Shown here piece by piece: positions 37,479 to 42,690 of a stretch of 64,000 nt of DNA (positions are counted from its first letter, which is position 1; the number at the start of each line of letters is the position of its first letter). A model generated the notes under the pieces. It saw nothing but the letters and a program-made list of their open reading frames with translations, ran no database searches and was not told the origin of the DNA. The stretch is from Clostridia bacterium (GTDB lineage: Bacteria; Bacillota; Clostridia; Oscillospirales; Acutalibacteraceae), in NCBI GenBank assembly GCA_017502085.1, contig JAFVVQ010000050.1, forward strand, positions 62,001 through 126,000, read 5' to 3'. The position numbers were made by a program, and so were the translations under genes.

Positions 37479-37507
37479 TTGACAATAGACAATACATATG
37501 TTAAAAT
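37479..37507 (+). promoter_or_regulatory. Promoter of the transketolase/aminotransferase/SCP2 operon
   Basis: Perfect TTGACA (37479-37484), 17 nt, TAAAAT (37502-37507). The leader then has a small hairpin (AGGGGC/GCCTCT) before the GGAGG site. The 200 bp upstream of the promoter show nothing else. Confidence 0.8.
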
Positions 37508-37570
37508 AAATTGATTATTTATAGGTCAGGGGCATCCGCCTCTGCTATTAGAACAAAGGAGGAAACAAAA

Positions 37571-38329
37571 ATGACTGACTCAAGAACCCTTGCGTATATT
37601 AATCTCTACGCAGTGCTCGGTTCCCTCGAAAACCTCTGTGAGCTCGCGCCCGAGGCAAGCAGTCTGCTGACAAACAAAAAGCCCATCTCCATCGGCTTTG
37701 AAGTCAAAGGCGGTCCCAGTGCCACCATTACTTTCAAAAACGACAAGTGCAGAATGGAGCAGGGCTGCGAAAAGTGCGACGTTAAGCTCCCCTTCAGTTC
37801 CTGCGAAAAGTTCAACGGACTTATTGACGGCACAACAACTCCCATCCCTTCAAAAGGTTTCCACCACATCGGATTCCTTCTCAACAGCTTCACAAAGCTG
37901 ACCGATCTTCTTTCCAAGTATATGAGACCCGATCCCGAAGATCTCAAGGATCCCGATTTCTTCAGAATCAGCACCCTTCTGCTGCTCAACACAATCACGG
38001 TTGCCATTGCTCAGATCGGTAACAACGACGAAATCGGCAAGTTCTCTGCAAGCAATATGGTTGACGGCGAAATCTCGTTCAGCATCAAAGGCGCCGCTTC
38101 AACGACAATCAGAGTCAAGAATCACCGCCTTCTCGGCATCAAGAAAGCAAGCGAAAATCCCAGAGCAATTATGGAATTCAGCTCAATCGAACTTGCAAGA
38201 GATCTCTTTGACGGTAACGTTAACGCAATTGCTTGTATCGGCACAGGCGATATCGTTATGAAGGGTATGATCTCAATGCTCGATAACCTCAACAGAATTC
38301 TTGACAGAGTTGCTCTGTATCTTGCATAA
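37571..38329 (+). CDS. SCP2-like protein, operon gene 1
   Basis: A 252-residue protein that I place in the SCP2-like (sterol carrier) group from its beta-strand and helix pattern: ISIGFEVKGGPSATITFKND in the first half, and EISFSIKGAASTTIRVKNHR then IMEFSSIELARDLFDGNVNAIACIGTGDIVMKGMI in the second. Such domains have a hydrophobic tunnel for acyl chains or sterols. There is no signal peptide. A Cys trio, CRMEQGCEKCD, is unusual. A GGAGG site fixes the start; 20 upstream codons are open but lie in the leader. It is 15 bp before the aminotransferase and has a distant paralog at the end of the operon. Confidence 0.7.
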   Translation: MTDSRTLAYINLYAVLGSLENLCELAPEASSLLTNKKPISIGFEVKGGPSATITFKNDKCRMEQGCEKCDVKLPFSSCEKFNGLIDGTTTPIPSKGFHHIGFLLNSFTKLTDLLSKYMRPDPEDLKDPDFFRISTLLLLNTITVAIAQIGNNDEIGKFSASNMVDGEISFSIKGAASTTIRVKNHRLLGIKKASENPRAIMEFSSIELARDLFDGNVNAIACIGTGDIVMKGMISMLDNLNRILDRVALYLA

Positions 38330-38344
38330 GGAGGTAAAGAGAAT

Positions 38345-39607
38345 ATGAGTTTCGCTATCAATACACACGAAAAAAGTGCAGAACTCTTCCAGAGAGCTGC
38401 AAAAGTTATTCCCTCAGGACTTTACGGCCATCAGGGTCCTGCAGAAGGCTGCTGCATCCCCGTTTCAGCTTATCCTCTCTTCAGTCAGAAAGCTCAGGGT
38501 ACATATTTCTGGGACGTTGACGGTCACAGATATATAGACTATATGTGTGCTTACGGCCCCAACGTGCTCGGTTACAACGACCCCGACGTTGATAAGGCTG
38601 TTATGGAGCAGATGAAGATTGAAAACTGCGTTACTGCTCCCTCAACAAAAATCATTGAGTTCGCAGAACTCATGGTTGACACCGTTGCTTCTGCTGACTG
38701 GGCATTCTTCGCAAAGAACGGCGGCGACACAACAACAGCCGCTATTATGACAGCAAGAGCCGCTACTCACAGAAAGAAAATCATTTTCGTTAAAGGCTAT
38801 TATCACGGTGTTGCACCCTGGTGCCAGAAGGTTGACTACCCCGGTGTTATCCCCGAAGACGTTGCAAACAACCTCTACGTTGAATGGAACAACTTCGAAG
38901 ACCTCAAAAGAATCGTTGCCGAAAATGAAGGCGAAATCGCCGCTTTCATTTCAACACCCTATATGCACGGCAACTTCATTGATAACGTTCTCCCCGCCGA
39001 AGGCTATTGGCAGAAAGTCCGCAAGCTCTGCACAGAGAAGGGCATCGTTCTCATCGTAGATGACGTTCGCTGCGGTTTCAGACTTGACCTTGCCGGCTCC
39101 GACCATCATTACGGCTTCGAGGCTGACCTTATCTGCTTCTGCAAGGCTCTTGCCAACGGCTGGAACGTTTCCGCTCTCTGCGGTAAGGATTGGCTCAAGA
39201 GTGCAATCAGCGGCCTTTCTTACACAGGCAGTTACTGGATGAGTGCAGTCCCCTTCGCAGCTGCAATCGCCTGCATCAACAAGATGAAGGAAATCGACCT
39301 TCCCAAGATTTGTCTTGAAAAGGGCACAATGCTCACAGACGGTCTCAAGGCTGCCGCTGCAAACAACGGCTTCAATCTCAGCGTCACAGGCGAACCCGCT
39401 CTCTTCTATCTGATGCTTAAGGATGACAACTCCCTTATGCTTCATCAGGAGTGGATTGCCGAAATCGTCAAGAGAGGCGTATTTATGACCAACCATCATA
39501 ACCACTTTATCAACGCATCTCTTTCTGACGAAGATATTAAGTTCACAATCGATGTTGCCGAGGATGCATTCAACACTCTCCGCAAAAATCATCCCGAACT
39601 TAAATAA
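38345..39607 (+). CDS. Class III (glutamate-1-semialdehyde-like) aminotransferase
   Basis: A 420-residue PLP enzyme. YFWDVDGHRYIDYMCAYG and NGGDTTTAAIMTARA are fold type I landmarks. VDDVRCGFR carries the Asp that contacts the PLP nitrogen, and CFCKALANGW carries the Schiff-base Lys. The order resembles glutamate-1-semialdehyde aminomutase, but no haem-pathway gene is nearby, so another ketone or aldehyde substrate is likely. The next two genes make a transketolase, which would supply an alpha-hydroxyketone. A strong AAGGAGG site lies upstream. Confidence 0.9.
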   Translation: MSFAINTHEKSAELFQRAAKVIPSGLYGHQGPAEGCCIPVSAYPLFSQKAQGTYFWDVDGHRYIDYMCAYGPNVLGYNDPDVDKAVMEQMKIENCVTAPSTKIIEFAELMVDTVASADWAFFAKNGGDTTTAAIMTARAATHRKKIIFVKGYYHGVAPWCQKVDYPGVIPEDVANNLYVEWNNFEDLKRIVAENEGEIAAFISTPYMHGNFIDNVLPAEGYWQKVRKLCTEKGIVLIVDDVRCGFRLDLAGSDHHYGFEADLICFCKALANGWNVSALCGKDWLKSAISGLSYTGSYWMSAVPFAAAIACINKMKEIDLPKICLEKGTMLTDGLKAAAANNGFNLSVTGEPALFYLMLKDDNSLMLHQEWIAEIVKRGVFMTNHHNHFINASLSDEDIKFTIDVAEDAFNTLRKNHPELK

Positions 39608-39664
39608 GTACCGTAAGCGGTTTCATCCGCTGAATTATAAACATTATAAAGGAGGAATATTCCT

Positions 39665-40537
39665 ATGGCATTAACAAAACAGGAATGGCTTGCTCTTGAA
39701 GAAAAGGCTTATGAGCTTCGTCAGCTCTGCCTCGACACCACATTCTGGGCAGGCAGTGCTCACATCGGCGGCGGTATGAGCGTTATGGATATGCTCGCCA
39801 TTCTCTACTACAAGTATATGAAGTATGACGTCGAAAATCCCAACTGGGAAGACAGAGACCGCTTCATCCTCAGCAAGGGTCACGCAGGTGTTGCTCTTGC
39901 AAGCCTTGTTTGTCACATTGGTTTTGACGACAAAGAAAAACTCAAGACATTCAACCTCAGCAACTCAACAATGGGTATCCACCTCGACTCCAACAAAGTC
40001 AAGGGCGTTGATGCTTCAACAGGTTCACTCGGTCACGGTCTTCCCATTGCTCTCGGCACTGCACTCGCAGCAAGAGTTCTCGGCAAGGATTACAAGACCT
40101 TCTGCATCATGGGCGACGGCGAACTTGACGAAGGTTCAAACTGGGAAGCAGCTATGGCTGCCGCTCACTTCAAGGCAGATAACCTCATTTCTTTCGTTGA
40201 CCGCAACAAGTGCATGATCGACGGCAGAACAGAAGACGTTATGGCGCTTGAACCTCTTGCAGACAAATGGGCAGCTTTCGGCTTCATCGTTAAGGTTGTC
40301 AACGGTCACAACTTCAACGAACTTGCAGAAGCTATTGACTTCGCTCTCGAAAACAAGAGCGGCAAGCCCGTTATGATCATCGCCGACACCATCAAGGGTG
40401 AAGGCGTTGACTTCATGGAAGACAACTTCATGTGGCATTACGGTGCTATCAACGAAGAAAAATATGAACTTGCAAAAGCAAGTCTTGAAAAACACTATGC
40501 TAAGCGCGTAGCTCGCGCAGAAAAGGAGGGCATCTGA
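39665..40537 (+). CDS. Transketolase, N-terminal (TPP-binding) subunit
   Basis: The 290-residue half of a split transketolase. SAHIGGGMSVMDML and SKGHAGVAL near the N-terminus shape the active site. The TPP/Mg motif is GDGELDEGSNWEAAM and then FVDRN, the standard GDG-x-N spacing. IADTIKGEGVDFMED and MWHYG come from the C-terminal part of the PP domain. Split transketolases of this type exist in many anaerobes and often serve special pathways. This gene is followed by its partner with 2 bp between, which implies 1:1 synthesis. Confidence 0.92.
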   Translation: MALTKQEWLALEEKAYELRQLCLDTTFWAGSAHIGGGMSVMDMLAILYYKYMKYDVENPNWEDRDRFILSKGHAGVALASLVCHIGFDDKEKLKTFNLSNSTMGIHLDSNKVKGVDASTGSLGHGLPIALGTALAARVLGKDYKTFCIMGDGELDEGSNWEAAMAAAHFKADNLISFVDRNKCMIDGRTEDVMALEPLADKWAAFGFIVKVVNGHNFNELAEAIDFALENKSGKPVMIIADTIKGEGVDFMEDNFMWHYGAINEEKYELAKASLEKHYAKRVARAEKEGI

Positions 40538-40539
40538 TC

Positions 40540-41550
40540 ATGGCAGGAGGATTAACCTACACAGCTGCAGAATCAACCGCTTTTTCAACTGCTGAAATTT
40601 ACGGTAAGGCTCTCTGCGAGCTCGGCGAAAAGCATCCTGAGGTAGTAGCTCTTACTGCTGACCTCGGTAAATCAACAAAAATCGGTATGTTCGGCGAAAA
40701 GTTCCCCGAGAGATTCTTCAACGTCGGTATCGCTGAACAGAATATGTTCGGTGTTGCCGCAGGTATGGCAAAGGCAGGTCTCGTTCCCTTCCTTTCAACA
40801 TTCTCGGTTTTCGCTTCTCTCAGAAGTGCCGATCAGCTTCATACCGACATCTGCTATCAGAACATCAACGCAAAGGTTATCGCTACCCACGCAGGTACAT
40901 CTTTCGGTCAGGCAGGTTCAACTCACCACGCAATCTGCGACCTTGCAGTTTGCCGTTCAATCCCCAATCTGACAGTTATCTGCCCCGCTGACGGTCTCGA
41001 AACCTACAATGCAGTTCACGCCGCATACGACAACTTCGGTCCTTATTACATCCGTATCAACAGAGGCTTTGACCGCGTTCTCTATGAGAACTCCGACTAC
41101 GGCTTCGAGGTTGGTAAGGCTGTTACAATCAACGAAGGCTCCGATATTACCGTTATTGCTTGCGGTTCATGCGTATTCCAGGCATATCAGGCAGCAAAGT
41201 TCCTTGAAACAAACGACGGTCTTAAGGTAAGAGTGCTCAATATGCACACCATAAAGCCCATCGATAAGGAAGCTATCATCAAGGCTGTTATGGATACCCG
41301 CCGCATCATCACTGTTGAAGACCATAACGTTATCGGCGGTCTCGGCAGTGCAGTTGCAGAGGTTATCGTTGAAGCAGGTAAGGGTTGCGCATTCAAGCAG
41401 CTCGGTATCCCCGATAAGTTTGCACCCATCGGTCTTCACGAAGACATTATGTCCGCTCTCGGCATCGACCAGAACGGTATCATCGATGCAGTCCGCGAAG
41501 TTATGGGTAAAGACTTCGAACTTGATGACGACTGGGATGACGAAGCATAA
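40540..41550 (+). CDS. Transketolase, C-terminal (Pyr) subunit
   Basis: The 336-residue partner. The catalytic Glu is in NVGIAEQNMFGVAAG. ALTADLGKSTK, FASLRSADQLHTDICYQN and THAGTSFGQAGSTHHAICDL form the pyrimidine-binding domain; the C-terminal domain starts near VITIACGSC-like ITVIACGSCVFQA and has HTIKPIDKEAII and EDHNVIGGLGSAVAE. All essential residues look intact. A ribosome site GGAGG lies inside the end of the previous gene. The last codons are acidic (DDDWDDEA). It is followed by the 79-bp repeat array. Confidence 0.92.
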   Translation: MAGGLTYTAAESTAFSTAEIYGKALCELGEKHPEVVALTADLGKSTKIGMFGEKFPERFFNVGIAEQNMFGVAAGMAKAGLVPFLSTFSVFASLRSADQLHTDICYQNINAKVIATHAGTSFGQAGSTHHAICDLAVCRSIPNLTVICPADGLETYNAVHAAYDNFGPYYIRINRGFDRVLYENSDYGFEVGKAVTINEGSDITVIACGSCVFQAYQAAKFLETNDGLKVRVLNMHTIKPIDKEAIIKAVMDTRRIITVEDHNVIGGLGSAVAEVIVEAGKGCAFKQLGIPDKFAPIGLHEDIMSALGIDQNGIIDAVREVMGKDFELDDDWDDEA

Positions 41551-41570
41551 TTTGAGTTATTTTCACTTTC

Positions 41571-41800
41571 TCGGTCGGTCGTGTATAAAAAATACACTTC
41601 CCTTCCTGCGAAAGCGAAACTGATCTCAAATCTGTAATTGGTTTTTGATTTCAGGTCGGCCGTGTATAAAATACACTTTCCTCCCTGCGAAAGCGAAACT
41701 GATCTCAAATCTGTAATTGGATTTTGATTTCAGATCGGCCGTGTATAAAATACACTTCCCTCCCTGCGAAAGCGAAACTGATCTCAGATCCGAAATCTTA
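41571..41800. repeat. Tandem array of a 79-bp structured repeat, three copies
   Basis: Nearly identical units begin at CGTGTATAAA (41580, 41661, 41740), spaced 81 and 79 bp; the third is partial. Each has a palindrome GTGTAT-AAA-ATACAC (two more A in copy 1), then TGCGAAAGCGAAACTGATCT. Between units, GATCTCAAATC can pair with the later GATTTCAGATC (one mismatch). No long frame crosses the array and no good T run follows the hairpins. It could bind a regulator in three places, or form RNA structure that lowers expression of the last gene. No other copies were seen in the window. Confidence 0.9.
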
Positions 41801-41831
41801 TCCCATCGATTAATTGAAAGGAATGATTTAT

Positions 41832-42641
41832 ATGGCTTCGAGAGAAGATTTTTTGACCAATAAAATTTTCCTTTGTGCAGTTCTTCCCCTTATCAAAACA
41901 ATCGCTATGGATGACCCCAAACTTGCAAAAAAGTTTGAGCACGCTCATGCTGTTATCCAGGTAAGTGCAAAAGATCCCGATGCTCCCGACGGAAAGTTTT
42001 CAACTCATTTCGTCGTCAACAGCGGTGAATGGATCTGCCACACCGATAAGGTTGCAACAAATGCTCACATCGAACTTGAGTTCAAGAGCATTGAAACAAT
42101 GAACGCATTCTTCAAAGGAAAGATCGGCCCCGCAACCCTTCCCGCAATGAAGGGTATTGCAAAGAAGCCTGCGGTATTTGCCGCATTTATGATGACTCTT
42201 CTCAAAATGTCATCACTTCTCACTGCAAAAGAGCCTCCCGCTGACGAAGAAACCAAGAAACTCCTTGTCAAGTGCTATTTCTATCTGCTTTCAAGCGGTA
42301 TCAGCACACTCAACAAGCAGGGTCACGAGGAAATCCACAACTGGACCCTCAAGAGCCCCGACAGAGTTTACGCTTGGGCAGTTAACGGTTATCCCGAAAT
42401 TTCAGCATATATCCGCATCAAGGCAGGTAAGTCAAAGGCAGGTAGAGGCACATACAAGCGCGCTCTCCCCTTCTTCACAATGAGATTTGACTCACTTGAC
42501 AGTGCGCTCGGCATCCTTATGGGTACTGCCGATATGCTTGAATTCACAAAGGCAAGCAAACTTATTATGGACGGTGCTCCCGAATTCGGTGCACAGATCG
42601 GTGCATATATGATGATGGTCGGCGACTACGCTCAGGGCTGA
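41832..42641 (+). CDS. SCP2-like protein, operon last gene
   Basis: A 269-residue protein, distantly like the first gene of the operon: FSTHFVVNSGEWICHTDKVATNAHIELEFKSIETMNAFFKGK resembles the beta/helix SCP2 core, and PFFTMRFDSLDSALGILMGTADML fits its end. There is no signal peptide. It is separated from the transketolase by the repeat array, so it may be co-transcribed at a lower level or have its own control. AAAGGAATG site; ATG six codons earlier lacks one. Terminator follows. Binding of a hydrophobic intermediate is inference. Confidence 0.7.
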   Translation: MASREDFLTNKIFLCAVLPLIKTIAMDDPKLAKKFEHAHAVIQVSAKDPDAPDGKFSTHFVVNSGEWICHTDKVATNAHIELEFKSIETMNAFFKGKIGPATLPAMKGIAKKPAVFAAFMMTLLKMSSLLTAKEPPADEETKKLLVKCYFYLLSSGISTLNKQGHEEIHNWTLKSPDRVYAWAVNGYPEISAYIRIKAGKSKAGRGTYKRALPFFTMRFDSLDSALGILMGTADMLEFTKASKLIMDGAPEFGAQIGAYMMMVGDYAQG

Positions 42642-42657
42642 TAAAGCATAAAATTTT

Positions 42658-42690
42658 ACCGCTGTTTCCTTTTCGGGAAACAGCGGTTGT
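42658..42690. terminator. Terminator of the transketolase operon
   Basis: Stem ACCGCTGTTTCC / GGAAACAGCGGT with a 6-nt loop, then TGTTTCATTTC. It lies between convergent genes; A-rich sequence on the other side gives T on the minus strand. Confidence 0.85.

What the first reader, a model, noticed from the sequence alone, without database searches (positions are those of the whole stretch)
37479..42690. Operon of split transketolase, class III aminotransferase and two SCP2-like proteins
The same transcript joins a two-subunit transketolase, a glutamate-1-semialdehyde-like aminotransferase and two hydrophobic-ligand-binding type proteins. I know no described pathway with this set. Inference: transketolase adds a two-carbon ketol unit to an aldehyde, giving HOCH2-CO-CH(OH)-R, and the aminotransferase converts the ketone to an amine, giving a 2-amino-1,3-diol. 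If R is a fatty chain held by the SCP2 proteins, the product is a sphingoid-type base made without serine palmitoyltransferase. If R is a sugar, it is an amino sugar or amino polyol.
Basis: inference. Interest (0 to 1): 0.8.

Follow-up and report, generated by a model that had tools for sequence, protein, structure and literature searches.

The report
Possible transketolase route to sphingoid bases
A five-gene operon conserved in gut and rumen Clostridia pairs a remodelled transketolase with an aminotransferase whose closest solved relative acts on a sphingosine-like toxin; in some related genomes the aminotransferase half shares an operon with the classical sphingosine-making enzymes, so it probably belongs to sphingoid-lipid metabolism, perhaps as a second way to make that backbone.

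Summary
The operon is real: SCPa-AT-TKN-TKC-SCPb, 37571-42641. Order and strand are kept in 64 of 64 complete related loci; neighbours are not conserved. AT's nearest solved relative is FumI, which deaminates the sphingoid analogue hydrolysed fumonisin. The transketolase keeps its catalytic residues, but E. coli's acceptor-site R91/D469 pair is N/A in 36 of 36; some other split transketolases have lost it too. Most telling, SCPa-AT also occurs without the transketolase. All 9 such genomes sampled in the order carry serine palmitoyltransferase (SPT), and in 4 of them SPT and a 3-ketosphinganine-reductase-like gene share SCPa-AT's operon. TKN-TKC-SCPb is a separable unit: in two genomes it lies at another locus. 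Substrate, direction (making or breaking sphingoid bases) and stereochemistry are unproven, and why AT is kept beside SPT is unexplained. No structure could be predicted. I favour synthesis (0.37) over breakdown (0.25).

The parts
37479..37507 (+). promoter-like site TTGACA-17-TAAAAT upstream of SCPa
   Evidence: consensus scan, 11 of 12 matches with TG before the second hexamer; not evidence of function
37571..38329 (+). SCPa: tandem SCP2-like protein (252 aa from ATG 37571; a TTG at 37511 is an alternative start)
   Evidence: PF02036 in 27 of 36 family members; two halves resemble each other, hhalign E 3.7e-6, probability 73%
38345..39607 (+). AT: FumI-type class III aminotransferase (420 aa), catalytic Lys267 kept
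39665..40537 (+). TKN: N-terminal (thiamine diphosphate) half of a split transketolase (290 aa)
40540..41550 (+). TKC: C-terminal (pyrimidine-binding + C) half of the split transketolase (336 aa)
41573..41790 (.). 79-bp tandem repeat, 2.7 copies, between TKC and SCPb; may belong to the leader of SCPb or be a bystander
   Evidence: a 24-base core of it occurs 3 times in the assembly, all here
41832..42641 (+). SCPb: second, distant SCP2-like protein (269 aa from ATG 41832; TTG 41814 is an alternative start)
42658..42687 (+). terminator-like stem (13 pairs) after SCPb

Best explanation
The operon is a two-part module of sphingoid-base metabolism and most likely makes a sphingoid-type base without serine palmitoyltransferase. 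TKN+TKC form one transketolase that moves a two-carbon ketol unit from a sugar phosphate or hydroxypyruvate onto a long-chain aldehyde presented by SCPb, giving the 1,3-dihydroxy-2-ketone HOCH2-CO-CH(OH)-R (inferred). The FumI-type aminotransferase, with SCPa as its lipid-handling partner, turns the C2 ketone into an amine, giving HOCH2-CH(NH2)-CH(OH)-R (inferred; FumI itself works on the C2 amine of a sphingoid analogue). TK+AT would add to the chain the same two-carbon amino-alcohol unit that SPT plus 3-ketosphinganine reductase add. Shown here: conservation of the operon, its two separable halves, the FumI relationship, loss of the acceptor-site R91/D469 pair, and operonic linkage of SCPa-AT to SPT/KdsR-like genes in relatives. 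Not shown: any substrate, product, direction or lipid binding.
For: Same order and strand in 64 of 64 complete loci. FumI 355 bits against 211 for the next solved chain with the profile, 295 against 159 with the single protein; FumI moves the 2-amino group of hydrolysed fumonisin B1 to pyruvate (PMC2933618). R91->N and D469->A in 36 of 36; D469T is called propanal-accepting in E. coli transketolase (PMC10787763 passages). Operons SCPa-AT-SPT-KdsR (G487, G500) and SPT-KdsR-SCPa-AT (G643, G669), gaps -11 to 33 nt. SPT in 9 of 9 pair-only genomes of the order against 53 of 394 overall. TKN-TKC-SCPb at a separate locus of genomes that also hold SCPa-AT (G434, G923). TK + transaminase as a built cascade to an amino-alcohol (PMC5813273 abstract).
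Against: Where SPT and KdsR are present they should make sphinganine unaided, yet AT is kept in all nine. 44 SPT genomes of the order have no SCPa. FumI is a catabolic deaminase; in G980 an amino-acid-permease-like gene precedes SCPa-AT and there is neither SPT nor SCPb. R91/D469 are also lost in other split transketolases of these genomes (L150, L157, L159), and R318 is kept in deep member G923, so the residue losses are not specific to fatty aldehydes. A canonical split transketolase that keeps both takes bulky aldehydes anyway (PMC7661550 passages). Transketolases give the 3S centre, natural sphinganine is 3R (recalled). TK-versus-SPT exclusivity is confounded with family f1. No structure model, no lipid data.
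Confidence: 0.37

Rival explanations
1. Breakdown or salvage of sphingoid bases: AT deaminates exogenous sphingoid bases (diet, host, fungi, Bacteroidota) to the 1,3-dihydroxy-2-ketone, and TK cleaves C2-C3, releasing a fatty aldehyde and passing the ketol unit to a sugar phosphate. The SCP proteins handle the lipids.
For: FumI is a catabolic deaminase. Of the 17 transketolase genomes only G922 has SPT, so the others may have no sphingoid base of their own. Permease-like gene before SCPa-AT in G980. A strong alkaline-ceramidase match in G923 (203 bits).
Against: An operon joining AT to SPT and KdsR (G487, G500, G643, G669) is odd for breakdown. Over the ceramidase cut-off only G923 and, marginally, G754 of the 17 transketolase genomes. 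No conserved lipase or transporter beside the cassette.
Confidence: 0.25
2. The shared product is nitrogen-free: a long-chain 1,3-dihydroxy-2-ketone (or the triol from it). TK makes it directly; in SPT genomes SPT+KdsR make sphinganine and AT deaminates it to the same ketone. In transketolase genomes AT feeds sphingoid bases into that pool or draws from it.
For: It explains why AT stays with SPT/KdsR in one operon and agrees with FumI's direction.
Against: AT is then not needed beside TK, yet it is in the cassette in 64 of 64 complete loci. I know of no such lipid from these bacteria; no search was made for it.
Confidence: 0.08
3. Sugar or polyol chemistry: the TK acts on aldose phosphates and AT makes an amino sugar or amino polyol; the SCP proteins are not lipid carriers.
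For: TKC keeps S345, H416 and R474 of the substrate phosphate site in 36 of 36. Plasmid-borne AT relatives lie near sugar kinases and class II aldolases in several cases.
Against: R91/D469 and R318 lost; no sugar-nucleotide or glycosyltransferase family conserved beside the cassette; SPT/KdsR operons; FumI; SCP2 hits.
Confidence: 0.12
4. Another hydrophobic aldehyde or ketone (branched, isoprenoid or aromatic), giving a different amino-diol lipid or a small secondary metabolite.
For: The split transketolase of Carboxydothermus takes phenylacetaldehyde and cyclohexanecarboxaldehyde (PMC7661550 passages), so bulky acceptors in general are possible.
Against: FumI and the SPT/KdsR operons point to straight long chains.
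Confidence: 0.1

Closest known systems
FumI, aminopentol aminotransferase of Sphingopyxis sp. MTA144 (PDB 6hbs, 6hbv)
   Same: Best solved match of AT by a wide margin; shares many family-conserved residues that the compared GSAM lacks; substrate is a sphingoid-base analogue.
   Different: 37% identity; catabolic; the nine plasmid-borne AT relatives inspected (FumI's own gene neighbourhood was not) have no TK or SCP2 proteins beside them.
SPT + 3-ketosphinganine reductase (classical sphingoid-base synthesis, Bacteroidota type)
   Same: Would give the same carbon skeleton; sits in one operon with SCPa-AT in four genomes.
   Different: Uses acyl-CoA and serine; SPT not found in the window's genome (84.5% complete) or the 12 other family-f1 module genomes.
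Split transketolase of Carboxydothermus hydrogenoformans (PDB 6yaj, 6yak)
   Same: Same split into N and C chains; best solved match of both halves.
   Different: Keeps R91/D469/R318 equivalents, which the family has lost.
Transketolase-transaminase cascades of biocatalysis (PMC5813273, abstract)
   Same: Same two-step chemistry to a 2-amino-1,3-diol type product.
   Different: Man-made, with a small polar substrate.

Membership tests
FumI-type (aminopentol/sphingoid) aminotransferase | sequence nearer to FumI than to other class III enzymes | tested here: met
   355 against 211 bits, 295 against 159; tree separates the family and FumI from GSAM (99/97), though whether the Bacillota rows form one group apart from FumI is unsure (87/64)
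FumI-type (aminopentol/sphingoid) aminotransferase | catalytic lysine and PLP fold residues | tested here: met
   K267 and D239 conserved in the family and shared with FumI and GSAM
FumI-type (aminopentol/sphingoid) aminotransferase | transamination of a long-chain 2-amino-3-ol | not testable with these tools
   needs an assay
Glutamate-1-semialdehyde aminomutase (HemL) | NCBIfam family cut-offs | tested here: not met
   229 bits against 398 and 204 against 527
Transketolase | N, pyrimidine and C domains with catalytic His/Glu residues | tested here: met
   Pfam; H37, H77, H110, D155, N185, H258 and E366 of human TK kept in 36 of 36
Transketolase | acceptor-site residues for hydroxyaldehyde phosphates (R318, D424 human; R91, D469 E. 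coli) | tested here: not met
   R318 -> A/S/T, D424 -> A, R91 -> N in 36 of 36; S345, H416, R474 kept; that human D424 equals E. coli D469 is recalled numbering
SCP2 (PF02036) | Pfam SCP2 domain | tested here: inconclusive
   SCPa 22.6 bits, just over the cut-off of 21.3, 27 of 36 members at E <= 0.05; SCPb 1 of 35
SCP2 (PF02036) | fold with a hydrophobic lipid tunnel | not tested
   structure prediction failed and was then switched off
SPT-dependent sphingoid synthesis | SPT present in the genome | tested here: not met
   no match at E 1e-30 in G000 or 12 other f1 module genomes; G000 is 84.5% complete

The most novel reading that the evidence does not exclude
Gut and rumen Clostridia have an SPT-independent, thiamine-dependent route to sphingoid bases: ketol transfer to a fatty aldehyde, then transamination, each step with its own SCP2-like carrier. 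They have exchanged it with the SPT/KdsR route around a constant SCPa-AT core.
Probability: 0.33. Interest if true: 0.9.

Novelty: new variant of a known kind. Interest (0 to 1): 0.75.

Why it matters
Sphingoid bases are held to arise from serine palmitoyltransferase (recalled). A second natural route in Clostridia of animal guts would change which microbes count as sphingolipid makers when surveys look for SPT. It would be a natural counterpart of the transketolase-transaminase cascade that chemists built, and would give bacterial SCP2-like proteins a defined job. The breakdown reading would be new too: an anaerobic way to dismantle sphingosine without sphingosine-1-phosphate lyase.

Tried and rejected
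HemL/porphyrin role for AT: rejected on cut-offs, residues and tree. DXS: rejected, best models and solved matches of both halves are transketolases. A conserved sugar-nucleotide or capsule neighbourhood: not found; no neighbouring family is in more than 16 of the loci, against 65-82 for the five (83 loci and the window, ORFs of 90 aa or more). The divergent pair of a second class III aminotransferase and a class II aldolase lies upstream of some loci and is unlinked in the window's genome (L002), so I left it out.

TK-versus-SPT exclusivity as proof: Fisher p 7e-5 over 28 genomes is confounded with family f1, where SPT is rare anyway; 0 of 14 transketolase genomes of the order with SPT has P 0.13 by chance. 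The p of 8e-9 for 9 of 9 ignores relatedness (four families) and is overstated; operon linkage is the firmer evidence. Ceramidase as a mark of breakdown: inconclusive. The AT tree has long branches and a flagged long-branch join; I lean only on the split from GSAM, the nine-row pair-only clade and the place of G692.

Gaps: absence of SCPb was tested in all 11 pair-only genomes, absence of a family-type TKC only in four (G316, G692, G500, G980). L117 has an ordinary full-length transketolase 4.5 kb away on the other strand. G894 has TKN-TKC but no SCPb match and a contig end. One search used exact peptides of the window's SCPa and kept 80 of 86 relatives, so it favours near kin. Alignments A1-A4 used 35 of the 64 complete loci plus the window, A5 34 plus the window (L046 dropped, short ORF). 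In one search the GSAM row is a fragment: six of the 42 FumI-shared positions lie beyond its end. In one search some SPT ORFs were in over-long frames; positions used are those. each searched 394 genomes of the order; that it is the same sample is inferred from the handles.

Changed on re-check: confidence in the best explanation from 0.40 to 0.37 and in the novel case from 0.35 to 0.33, because the R91/D469 loss is shared with other split transketolases, and because G692 has no KdsR beside its SPT.
Full report
Observation. The window carries five + strand genes in a row: SCPa (37571-38329), AT (38345-39607), TKN (39665-40537), TKC (40540-41550) and SCPb (41832-42641). Pfam and NCBIfam make AT a class III aminotransferase, TKN and TKC the halves of a transketolase and SCPa a weak SCP2 protein; SCPb has no hit. 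A promoter-like site starts at 37479 and a terminator-like stem ends at 42687, almost exactly the interval of the finding. Between TKC and SCPb lies a 79-bp tandem repeat of 2.7 copies; its 24-base core occurs three times in the assembly, all here.

Conservation. A search of one genome for each of 84,980 species with the window's SCPa gave 86 relatives, 80 kept, from records titled Clostridia, Clostridiales, Oscillospiraceae, Ruminococcaceae and the like, mostly from gut and rumen. In 64 of 64 loci long enough to show it the five genes keep order and strand; the other 16 run off a contig. Median gaps are 13, 52, 2 and 32.5 nt. No neighbouring family is in more than 16 loci. The five genes are a unit in themselves. 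SCPa occurs in 23 of 394 genomes sampled from the order and 3 of 391 from the class.

Two sub-modules. In L114 (G922) the cassette is complete; in L116 (G894) it runs SCPa-AT-TKN-TKC to a contig end. In L115, L117-L121 and L134-L140 SCPa-AT stands without the split transketolase beside it. In G434 and G923 TKN-TKC-SCPb sits together at another locus of the same genome. SCPb is found in 16 of 17 genomes with the transketolase (G894 is the miss), 0 of 11 with the pair alone and 0 of 28 without SCPa. So SCPa travels with AT and SCPb with the transketolase, as if each SCP protein served its own enzyme. SCPa's two halves resemble each other (hhalign E 3.7e-6, probability 73%); the C-halves of SCPa and SCPb resemble each other weakly (E 8.5e-5, probability 32%).

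The aminotransferase. With the family profile the best solved chain is 6hbs, aminopentol aminotransferase, at 355 bits, then GSAM at 211; with the window protein alone 295 against 159. This is FumI, which moves the 2-amino group of hydrolysed fumonisin B1 to pyruvate (PMC2933618; abstract and Background read). Identity is 37% over 400 positions, against 32% over 349 with the one GSAM compared. Of 127 positions conserved in 43 family rows, 42 are shared with FumI and not that GSAM (six of them beyond the end of the GSAM fragment), 7 the other way; Lys267 is kept. In the tree the family and FumI separate from GSAM (99/97); G894 and G923 branch outside a weakly supported group (87/64) that joins the other Bacillota rows to FumI and its plasmid-borne kin. 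The nine plasmid-borne relatives inspected have no annotated TK or SCP2 gene nearby; two have an alpha-ketoacid dehydrogenase gene that the TK models hit at 35-36 bits.

The transketolase. Both halves best match the split transketolase of Carboxydothermus. Catalytic residues are kept in 36 of 36. R91 and D469, which form a salt bridge in E. coli transketolase (PMC5073344 passages), are Asn and Ala in 36 of 36, and human R318 is A, S or T in 36 of 36. [quoted passage not shown] That human D424 is E. coli D469 is recalled numbering that fits the 8-residue spacing from H416/H461. Canonical split transketolases of these genomes (L149, L153, L155, L161) keep R91, D469 and R318. Against specificity: other split paralogues (L150, L157, L159) also have Asn at R91 and no Asp at D469, and deep member G923 keeps R318. 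S345, H416 and R474 are kept in 36 of 36, so a phosphorylated partner is still expected. Carboxydothermus transketolase, which keeps R and D, takes bulky aldehydes too (PMC7661550 passages). A nonpolar natural acceptor is inference.

The decisive neighbour. In G487 and G500 the order is SCPa-AT-SPT-KdsR, in G643 and G669 SPT-KdsR-SCPa-AT, all on one strand with gaps of -11 to 33 nt. For the three loci scanned (L135-L137) the best NCBIfam model of the SPT is bacterial serine palmitoyltransferase (516-536 bits, cut-off 640 not reached) and of the reductase 3-ketodihydrosphingosine reductase (218-236 bits, cut-off 400 not reached); the best solved chain for the L137 SPT is Sphingobacterium SPT 3a2b (404 bits), while the L136 reductase has no KdsR among its solved matches. 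These are the first two steps of sphingoid-base synthesis. All 9 sampled genomes of the order with SCPa-AT and no SCPb have an SPT at 69-100% identity to the query, against 53 of 394 order genomes at E <= 1e-100, identity 49-100%. KdsR is next to SPT in 8 of those 9; in G692 it is not, and the best hit elsewhere is 36%. Outside the order the pair-only genomes G325 and G980 have no SPT. Of 17 genomes with the transketolase only G922 has SPT; in the window's family f1, 0 of 13. Of 28 genomes without SCPa, G630 has SPT (71%) and G562 only a 37% match. SPT is rare in f1 anyway, so the f1 absence carries little weight. 44 SPT genomes of the order have no SCPa. A KdsR-like gene without SPT occurs in transketolase genomes G754 (59%) and G725 (49%), and in G325 (53%).

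History. On the AT tree the early Bacillota branches (G894, G923, G922, G434) have the transketolase in cis or in trans; G980 has not. Nine pair-only rows form one clade (100/100), eight of them with SPT (G325 is the exception); G692, also with SPT, falls separately inside the transketolase group (97/96). The simplest reading is at least two losses of the transketolase unit in lineages that have SPT. SCPa-AT then looks like a constant core with two exchangeable partners.

Mechanism. TK adds HOCH2-CO- to an aldehyde and AT aminates C2, giving HOCH2-CH(NH2)-CH(OH)-R; SPT and KdsR turn acyl-CoA and serine into the same skeleton. Shown: gene linkages, residue losses, family relationships. Inferred: subunit assembly, ketol donor, aldehyde, amination, lipid binding by the SCP proteins, direction. 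A built TK-transaminase cascade makes 2-amino-1,3,4-butanetriol (PMC5813273 abstract).

What does not fit. AT should be superfluous where SPT and KdsR make sphinganine, yet it is kept in all nine. The breakdown and nitrogen-free-product rivals address this in different ways, and neither explains all cases. Transketolases make the 3S centre, natural sphinganine is 3R (recalled). In G980 an amino-acid-transporter-like gene (130 bits, cut-off 557) precedes SCPa-AT, which suggests uptake and deamination there. G923 has a strong ceramidase match (203 bits) and G754 a marginal one; the other 15 transketolase genomes have none over the cut-off, and one genome without SCPa (G092) has a marginal one.

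Literature. Full-text searches for transketolase + sphingoid base + aminotransferase + bacteria (0 papers), transketolase + sphinganine + fatty aldehyde (0) and transketolase + aminotransferase + SCP2 + gene cluster (1, a Streptomyces transcriptome by its title and abstract start) found no such pathway in the held open-licence library; most subscription papers are not in it. PMC11914097 (passages) reports phytosphingosine from the gut bacterium Flavonifractor plautii; in its main text 'serine palmitoyl' and 'transketolase' do not occur.

Verdict.

Noticed in passing
order sample (e.g. L164-L174, L195-L205): SPT-like genes occur in 53 of 394 genomes of this Clostridia order, in most fetched loci with a KdsR-like gene beside them; sphingolipid synthesis may be commoner in these bacteria than usually assumed.
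   Followed up: partly
L066:3299-4780:-, L070:1210-2430:- and similar; L002 in the window's own genome: A second class III aminotransferase next to a two-domain class II aldolase lies divergently upstream of the cassette in a number of loci (the aldolase family is in 16 loci, one of them L002 of the window's genome, where the pair is unlinked).
   Followed up: partly
L087 (MT835711.1): A record filed as 'Bacteriophage sp.' from human faeces carries the whole five-gene cassette (AT 60% identical), followed by what by eye look like ctsR-mcsA-mcsB-clpC genes; it is probably a bacterial chromosome piece.
   Followed up: no
41573-41790: A 79-bp tandem repeat with an inner palindrome (GTGTATAAAATACAC) between TKC and SCPb; its 24-base core is found only here in the assembly.
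   Followed up: partly
L077:5560-6863: In a record titled Oscillospiraceae bacterium Th196P3bin135 two unrelated-looking ORFs (one with a HELGHLLGIFH-like metalloprotease motif, by eye) sit between AT and TKN.
   Followed up: no
L123:11002-12021:+ and L132:3473-4492:-: An NAD-epimerase-like protein (by eye) directly follows SCPb on the same strand in G582 and G754; no NCBIfam match at 1e-20.
   Followed up: partly
L148 (G894:C48): G894 has a second split-transketolase pair close to the module family (TKC 391 bits); the genome search counted two TAA in the matched stretch.
   Followed up: no
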